Assembly: GCA_027035765.1 (NCBI GenBank) | Contig: JALVUD010000037.1 | Coordinates: 1-64,000, forward strand | Length of the DNA: 64,000 nucleotides | Direction: 5' to 3' | DNA from: Campylobacteraceae bacterium | Lineage (GTDB): Bacteria; Campylobacterota; Campylobacteria; Campylobacterales; Sulfurovaceae | In this document: in pieces, positions 9,762 to 59,921 of the stretch | Layout: every line of letters begins with the position of its first letter | How positions within the stretch are numbered: position 1 is the first letter of the stretch | Notes under the pieces: model-generated | What the model saw: the letters and a program-made list of their open reading frames with translations, nothing else | Told to the model about the DNA's origin: nothing | Databases searched by the model: none | Translations under genes and position numbers: made by a program

Positions 9762-9830
9762 TGAGGAATGAGGAATGAGGAATGAGAAACCGAATTTTTG
9801 GAACTAGTAACGAGTAACTAGGAACTAGTA
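9762..9830 (+). repeat. Paired heptamer arrays (TGAGGAA and ACTAGTA)
   Basis: Three TGAGGAA units plus TGAGAAA (9762-9789, 28 nt) and four ACTAGTA-type units (9803-9830, 28 nt), 13 nt apart. The sequence after the first array reads ATTCGGTTTCTCA on the minus strand, nearly identical to the lead-in of the array inside asnB. Confidence 0.9.
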
Positions 9831-9840
9831 ATTTTGGTAT

Positions 9841-9868
9841 GCGTTGCTTGACAACGCTCGTTTTTATT
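9841..9868 (+). terminator. Hairpin with T-run downstream of mutS2 (terminator-like)
   Basis: GCGTTG-CTTGA-CAACGC followed by TCGTTTTTATTT. The form fits a weak intrinsic terminator for mutS2, but similar hairpins with compensatory changes recur at other loci behind TTTTGGTA, so it may primarily be a repeat family. Confidence 0.45.
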
Positions 9869-9924
9869 TCAAGAGACAAAGAGGGGCGAAGCCCCGTTCA
9901 AACGACAAACGACGAAGAAACCTC

Positions 9925-9959
9925 CCAATGACTAATGACCAGTGACCAATGACTAATGT
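9925..9959 (+). repeat. Heptamer array, CCAATGA/CTAATGA
   Basis: Four full units alternating CCAATGA, CTAATGA, CCAGTGA, CCAATGA and a degenerate fifth. It is followed at 9962-9974 by a GCACC-GAA-GGTGC hairpin. Confidence 0.8.
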
Positions 9960-10052
9960 CCGCACCGAAGGTGCCTACAAAAAGCTCCCGAAAGTCGCAA
10001 TCCAGTATAATTGACCCTAAAGAAAGTAATTGAGTTCTCTGAGAAATTGCCG

Positions 10053-10167
10053 GTTTTACTCGATAGCTCTGGCAGTCGCGAACGCAAGCGCCCGTTTTAC
10101 GGGTTGAGCGCTCCTTTGTCGCCATCGAGTAAAACCTCTCTTGTCTGTTTTTCAGAGGGTTCAATTG
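10053..10167 (+). repeat. Structured two-copy element, copy 1
   Basis: Outer arms GTTTTACTCGAT (10053-10064) and ATCGAGTAAAAC (10124-10135) pair perfectly. Inside is CCCGT-TTT-ACGGG within an AGCGC/GCGCT stem, and downstream CCTCT pairs with AGAGG before GTTCAATTG. A second copy at 59668-59862 carries a compensatory change in the outer stem. It ends 33 nt before the next gene's start. Confidence 0.8.
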
Positions 10168-59615: not shown

Positions 59616-59921
59616 AGGGGCGCTTCGCTTGAGTGAAGAGTGAGGATGAGTCCTCTTGAAAAAAACGGTTTCACTCGATAGCTCTGGCAGTCGCGAACAT
59701 GAGAAGCGATAGCGAAGGACAACTGCTTGTCCTTCGCCGCTTCGGAACCGTAGCGGTCGGAGTGAAGCAAAGCCGCGGAGGAGCGCCCGTTTCACGGGTT
59801 GAGCGCTCCTTTGTCGCCATCGAGTGAAACCTCTCTTTCCCATTTTGCAGAGGGTTCAATTGGAAATGAGAAATTTGAAAAGATGTAGCGTGGGATTGCT
59901 ATCCCACGTAAAGGAGCGTAG
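59616..59921 (+). other. 306-nt gap between moaD and moaE without a gene
   Basis: Most of it is copy 2 of the structured element (59668-59862). A further hairpin, CGTGGGAT-TGCT-ATCCCACG (59888-59907), and GTAAAGGAG at 59908-59916 precede moaE. An open frame on the minus strand crosses the element but is not supported as a gene. Confidence 0.8.
59668..59862 (+). repeat. Structured two-copy element, copy 2
   Basis: Outer arms GTTTCACTCGAT (59668-59679) and ATCGAGTGAAAC (59819-59830) pair; relative to copy 1 both arms changed together. The 3' part (CCTCT, AGAGG, GTTCAATTG) is also shared. This copy carries about 80 nt more inside, including an 11-bp hairpin from GCGAAGGACAA to TTGTCCTTCGC (59712-59737). 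Confidence 0.85.

What the first reader, a model, noticed from the sequence alone, without database searches (positions are those of the whole stretch)
10053..10167. Two-copy structured element with a compensatory change (copy 1; copy 2 at 59668-59862)
Both copies have 12-bp outer arms, an inner CCCGT/ACGGG hairpin and a 3' CCTCT/AGAGG stem ending GTTCAATTG. Copy 1 arms are GTTTTACTCGAT/ATCGAGTAAAAC; copy 2 arms are GTTTCACTCGAT/ATCGAGTGAAAC. The same T-to-C change also appears in the inner loop (CCCGTTTTACGGG versus CCCGTTTCACGGG). Concerted change at three places indicates that pairing matters. Copies lie shortly before unrelated genes (YfgM-like gene, moaE).
Basis: seen in the sequence. Interest (0 to 1): 0.65.

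Follow-up and report, generated by a model that had tools for sequence, protein, structure and literature searches.

The report
Mobile intergenic repeat with folded core
The two copies belong to a large family of tiny transposon-like repeats, restricted as far as searched to sulfur-oxidising Sulfurovaceae bacteria, whose centre keeps the same folded single-strand shape even when almost every base pair of its stem has changed; this makes it a candidate new structured RNA or DNA element of unknown function.

Summary
The two copies belong to a family with 27 copies in this 2.03 Mb genome and over 100 in Nitratifractor, Sulfurovum and neighbouring MAGs. A model search of 397 Campylobacterota genomes found it only in that family. 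Each complete copy is a ~131 bp MITE (long form ~210 bp): terminal inverted repeats GAG..CTCTGAAAAA and a 4-bp target duplication (20 of 62 perfect, control 3 of 186; empty site AATT).

Inside lies a module that folds as one strand: a 16-bp stem of almost free sequence, a conserved internal loop, a short helix and an apical three-way junction. On 82 copies 97.6% of cells pair and 17 of 19 pairs show two-sided compensatory change. At loci where the terminal repeats have decayed, the module persists with compensatory changes.

Rfam and the held literature have nothing like it. Best reading: a non-autonomous MITE carrying a structured RNA (or ssDNA) under selection. The transposase was not found. 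"Three concerted changes" is two: the loop change is unlinked.

The parts
10028..10031 (.). Copy 1: left 4-bp target-site duplication AATT
   Evidence: Sequence; duplicated at 10163-10166; an empty site of the same kind is seen at L302/L305
10032..10051 (+). Copy 1: left terminal inverted repeat (GAGTTCTCTGAGAAATTGCC)
10052..10136 (-). Copy 1: folded module (P1 16 bp, internal loop, P2, apical hairpins), short form; folded strand is minus
   Evidence: Model R1 match at G000:C37:10052-10136:-, 108 bits
10052..10067 (-). Copy 1: P1 3' strand (on the minus-strand molecule)
10121..10136 (-). Copy 1: P1 5' strand (on the minus-strand molecule)
10148..10162 (-). Copy 1: right terminal inverted repeat (GAACCCTCTGAAAAA on the minus strand)
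10163..10166 (.). Copy 1: right 4-bp target-site duplication AATT
   Evidence: Sequence
59648..59666 (+). Copy 2: left terminal inverted repeat, slightly decayed (GAGTCCTCTTGAAAAAAAC); no matching 4-bp duplication kept
   Evidence: Sequence
59667..59831 (-). Copy 2: folded module, long form
59699..59786 (-). Copy 2: long-form apical extension (~80 nt, self-complementary, e.g. GCGAAGGACAA/TTGTCCTTCGC), approximate limits
   Evidence: 8 of 27 copies in the genome carry it
59843..59857 (-). Copy 2: right terminal inverted repeat (GAACCCTCTGCAAAA on the minus strand)

Best explanation
A non-autonomous transposable element (MITE) of Sulfurovaceae. It is moved in trans by a transposase that recognises the terminal repeats and duplicates 4 bp of AT-rich target. 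Its interior specifies a single-stranded fold read from the minus strand: a long P1 helix with little sequence constraint, a 5x6 internal loop (GASAA / GCMRGA), a P2 helix (with tandem G.A mismatches in the main class, Watson-Crick in a sister class), and an apical three-way junction whose second hairpin can be replaced by an ~80-nt domain. Shown: dispersal, terminal repeats, target duplications, empty sites, the fold by covariation, the folded strand by wobble asymmetry, and persistence of the module after the terminal repeats are lost. Inferred: that the folded molecule is a transcribed RNA that binds a partner (rather than extruded ssDNA), that it is selected for this at least at some fixed loci, and that a transposase in trans moves the element. 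Separate estimates: MITE 0.9; minus strand folded and selected 0.8; molecule is RNA rather than ssDNA 0.6.
For: 27 copies in the own genome; copies in 16 of 60 relatives, all of the same family; >=109 contigs, every listed one Campylobacterota. Target duplications 20/62 perfect against 3/186 control; clean empty site L302/L305 (AATT), further empty sites L096/L237 and L026/L295, and empty WD40-gene loci lacking the arms. Fold: MI-APC top pairs nearly all Watson-Crick; A2 counts 97.6% paired, 17/19 pairs with changes on both sides, 0/500 shuffles reach it, slid controls 31-43% paired. Strand: plus strand pairs only 90.3%; 123 A.C against 15 G.T cells in P1, 29 against 9 on unique arm pairs, p=0.0017. 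Minus-strand RNA MFE gives P1 independently, z -4.5 to -5.8. Sister class in G016 and G093 keeps the architecture with a fully paired P2. L224/L258: core 96% identical, arms compensated, flanks 74-84%, sequence just outside P1 40-43%. L227/L304: three two-sided P1 changes plus compensated P2 and apical hairpin.
Against: No transposase with matching ends was found: PF01609 absent from most of the genus including the own genome, PF07592 absent from relevant genomes, and the only Y1 transposase of the genome is flanked by unrelated repeats. No transcription data. No significant orientation bias to neighbouring genes (45 against 31 co-directional), which a cis-acting mRNA element might be expected to show. 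At single loci the apical part is swapped between copies (L292/L011, L152/L136, L160/L233), so gene conversion could contribute to core conservation. Related copies inflate the shuffle statistics.
Confidence: 0.7

Rival explanations
1. The compensatory changes arise without selection: the two arms are kept identical by template switching or gene conversion inside the palindrome, and the core is homogenised by recombination among copies. The element is then plain selfish DNA.
For: Apical domains differ between copies at the same locus while P1 and flanks stay (L292/L011, L152/L136, L160/L233), which looks like conversion between copies or independent insertion. At one locus the core is inverted between species (L224/L258), so arm-arm recombination may occur.
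Against: Arm conversion should leave A.C and G.T intermediates equally often; instead 29 against 9. Pairs 15-76 and 16-75 (A1 columns) are A.C on the plus strand in 84 cells and never G.T, i.e. G.U on the minus strand. P2 and the apical hairpin also covary, and P2 tandem G.A changes to Watson-Crick in the sister class. Unique arms limit conversion from other copies.
Confidence: 0.2
2. The functional fold is single-stranded DNA, not RNA: the minus strand extrudes as a hairpin (during replication or transposition) and is recognised by a protein such as a recombinase, as with attC sites, REPs or IS200/IS605 ends.
For: Apical loops on the minus strand are mostly GNA triplets (GAA, GCA, GTA, GGA), a motif known to stabilise DNA mini-hairpins (own knowledge). 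G.T wobble would give the same asymmetry in ssDNA. DNA folding also shows P1 (z -3.7 to -4.8). Core inversion at one locus.
Against: The predicted RNA folds are deeper and show the full architecture, whereas DNA folds are diffuse inside P1. The modules sit inside an element with its own terminal repeats and target duplications, so no ssDNA step is needed for movement. No recombinase was found linked to it.
Confidence: 0.25
3. Ordinary MITE: the interior is ballast, and the fold only reflects a long palindrome.
For: The same terminal repeats carry unrelated interiors: CGTC-REP dimers in this genome, a 266-bp interior and a 37-bp terminal-repeat-only palindrome with TTAT duplications.
Against: The interior has invariant unpaired positions, covarying pairs and persists where the terminal repeats have decayed.
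Confidence: 0.1

Closest known systems
Bacterial MITEs (RUP, NEMIS/Correia, ERIC, Nezha)
   Same: 70-300 bp, terminal inverted repeats, target duplication, intergenic, no coding capacity, folds into secondary structure (most of these features as listed in PMC3733652)
   Different: Interior is a conserved, covarying single-strand fold with invariant loop nucleotides and a stem of nearly free sequence; it persists after the terminal repeats are lost; no known terminal-repeat match or transposase identified
CGTC-tagged REPs (dRS3, RPE-4/6; Di Nocera 2013, PMC3733652)
   Same: Dispersed palindromic modules; dimers inside longer palindromes have been described (H. neapolitanus); in this genome CGTC-REP dimers sit in the very same terminal repeats
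   Different: No CGTC tag, no head-to-head dimer of 8-9 bp stems with 4-5 nt loops; one long stem with internal loop and apical junction instead
Rickettsia palindromic elements (RPE)
   Same: Palindromic mobile repeats; one copy here lies in frame inside a cbiD gene (L227)
   Different: Only 2 of 116 copies are inside genes; no sequence relation tested or seen
HEARO/omega RNA, bridge RNA and other transposon-encoded structured RNAs
   Same: Structured RNA inside a mobile element
   Different: No Rfam match at gathering or relaxed thresholds; no recombinase or nuclease gene in the element

Membership tests
MITE (non-autonomous IS derivative) | Terminal inverted repeats, short length, no coding capacity | tested here: met
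   117-132 bp short form, ~202 bp long form
MITE (non-autonomous IS derivative) | Target-site duplication of fixed length and empty sites | tested here: met
   4 bp, 20/62 perfect against 3/186 control; empty site L302/L305
MITE (non-autonomous IS derivative) | A related autonomous IS with the same ends | tested here: inconclusive
   None among fetched loci; PF01609 and PF07592 not present in relevant genomes; many genomes are fragmented MAGs and only some transposase families were tried
CGTC/GTAG REP or REPIN | GTAG or CGTC tag at the foot of a short stem-loop, usually as inverted dimer | tested here: not met
   Sequence of the module; CGTC REPs occur as a separate interior of the same terminal repeats
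REPIN / RAYT-mobilised | Y1 transposase gene flanked by the repeat | tested here: not met
   The only Y1 gene of the genome is flanked by AGGGGTCAGGTGATGCTAATG repeats
Known Rfam RNA family | Score above the family threshold | tested here: not met
Structured RNA (new class) | Covariation above shuffled and slid controls | tested here: met
Structured RNA (new class) | Transcription of the folded strand | not testable with these tools
   No expression data available

The most novel reading that the evidence does not exclude
A new class of structured RNA (minus strand, three-way junction, conserved GASAA/GCMRGA internal loop) spread through Sulfurovaceae genomes by a MITE and then kept at fixed loci for a function of its own, for example binding a cellular protein or acting on the surrounding transcript.
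Probability: 0.35. Interest if true: 0.75.

Novelty: new variant of a known kind. Interest (0 to 1): 0.55.

Why it matters
Most bacterial MITEs are treated as inert palindromes. Here single-strand folding is documented by dozens of compensatory changes, the folded strand can be named, and the fold outlives the mobile ends. This gives a naturally replicated data set (dozens of copies per genome) for asking whether small transposons distribute functional RNAs, and a structured-RNA candidate absent from Rfam in an environmentally important group.

Tried and rejected
Insertion of the core into pre-existing palindromes, or an inverted target duplication: empty WD40-gene loci hold no arm sequence. 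Mobilisation by the genome's RAYT-like gene: its flanking repeats are different. DDE transposases PF01609 and PF07592 as partner: not in relevant genomes. An orientation bias of terminal-repeat-less copies (11 against 0) from a crude ORF caller shrank to a non-significant one with a codon-based caller (15 against 7; overall 45 against 31). A protein-coding reading of the module: core lengths of 54-57 nt and frames do not agree between copies, apart from one in-frame copy. Rfam at relaxed thresholds gave only chance matches. Literature searches gave no description. Viral contigs: none.

Full report
What is there. The own genome (2.03 Mb, 47 contigs) holds 27 distinct copies: 19 short and 8 with an ~80-nt extra domain, like copy 2. 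Of 60 relatives searched, 16 carry the element, all in the same family and none in other families of the order. Viral contigs gave none. A covariance model searched against 397 genomes of the phylum matched 7, all in the same family. I take the family to be Sulfurovaceae and the genus Nitratifractor from the record titles and from the single-contig 2.10 Mb relative G011; this is inference.

The mobile unit. Flanks show that the element is larger than described. Terminal inverted repeats are GAG..CTCTGAAAAA in the genus, and GGGCACCTCTAAAAA or GGGCATCTCTGAAAA in sister genera. They are followed by 4-bp duplications (AATT for copy 1; elsewhere TTAT, ATCT, GTTT, TGAT and others). Perfect duplications occur in 20 of 62 paired elements against 3 of 186 offset controls. 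L302/L305 gives a clean filled/empty pair with one AATT at the empty site. So it is a MITE. The same terminal repeats also carry other interiors: CGTC-REP dimers in this genome, a 266-bp interior, and a terminal-repeat-only 37-bp palindrome flanked by TTAT in G036. CGTC REPs inside longer palindromes have been described in H. neapolitanus (PMC3733652).

The fold. A 54-58 nt core is nearly invariant at its two ends (CTCTGGCAGTCGC and CTCCTTTGTCGC) and is flanked by arms that differ almost freely in sequence but remain complementary: 44 distinct fully paired 12-bp arm pairs among 96 unique ones. Mutual information with APC ranks nearly only Watson-Crick pairs at the top. Read on the minus strand, 82 copies show 97.6% paired cells, 17 of 19 pairs with two-sided changes, and covariation 0.594 against 0.179 in shuffles and at most 0.105 for slid structures. 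On the plus strand 90.3% pair (a slightly larger set of 93). The difference is A.C mismatches on the plus strand, which are G.U on the minus strand: 123 against 15 G.T cells in P1, 84 of them at pairs 15-76 and 16-75; over 12 bp of unique arms 29 against 9, binomial p=0.0017. Since the elements lie in both orientations relative to genes, a replication or transcription strand bias of mutation is an unlikely cause. RNA folding of single minus-strand copies recovers the 16-bp P1, a short P2 and apical hairpins. A sister class in G016 and G093 has the same architecture, with P2 fully Watson-Crick where the main class has tandem G.A mismatches.

Selection or conversion. At diverged orthologous loci the module outlives its terminal repeats. 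L224/L258: flanks 74-84% identical, sequence just outside P1 40-43%, core 96%, one arm pair changed G-C to C-G, and the module inverted. L227/L304: just outside P1 53-59%, core 86%, three two-sided changes in P1, and further compensated changes in P2 and the apical hairpin. Related genomes without the element at the WD40-gene locus carry no arm sequence. Against pure selection: apical domains differ between copies at the same locus (L292/L011, L152/L136, L160/L233), so conversion between copies may help to homogenise cores. Pair maintenance by arm-arm conversion alone does not explain the wobble asymmetry.

Context. Of 116 loci only 2 lie inside genes; co-directional contexts are 45 plus against 31 minus, divergent 26, convergent 10. 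One copy is in frame in a cbiD gene, like a Rickettsia palindromic element (gene name from reading the translation).

Mechanism and limits. The most likely account is transposition in trans at the terminal repeats plus a folded minus-strand molecule that is selected, probably RNA. The autonomous partner was not found and transcription is untested. ssDNA remains possible, in part because the apical loops are mostly GNA triplets, which are known to stabilise DNA hairpins (own knowledge). Rfam has no match, and the held literature has no description.

Noticed in passing
L190:247-377 (G000:C36:38446-38576) and L192, L193, L197, L198, L201, L204, L205, L207: The same terminal repeats enclose CGTC-REP head-to-head dimers (GTCATTCCGG.../...CAGGATGACG) instead of the structured core, at nearly the same total length.
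   Followed up: partly
L393:381-417 and L396:443-708 (genome G036): A 37-bp palindrome made of the terminal repeats alone with TTAT duplications, and a 266-bp element with the same terminal repeats and an unrelated, highly self-complementary interior.
   Followed up: partly
L227:5226-5310 or L227:6860-6944 (the copy with arms GGGCGGACTCGAT; cbiD-like gene): A copy without recognisable terminal repeats sits in frame inside a cbiD-like gene (cobalamin synthesis), adding about 48 residues compared with the relative L304.
   Followed up: partly
G000:C20:28345-28674 (L328): The only Y1/RAYT-like transposase gene (256 aa) of the genome is flanked by inverted repeats AGGGGTCAGGTGATGCTAATG, a TIRtron as defined in PMC3733652; related ones lie in several genus members.
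   Followed up: partly
L224/L270 versus L258 (WD40 gene locus, Sulfurovum): The same locus carries the module in opposite orientation in different species.
   Followed up: partly
L292/L011, L152/L136, L160/L233: Same locus, same stem and ends, but the apical domain is a different variant (short against long or other sequence).
   Followed up: no
window 9800-9980: Degenerate short repeats of the type aactagtaac / tgaccaatgaccagtgaccaat next to copy 1; similar strings flank many other copies.
   Followed up: no
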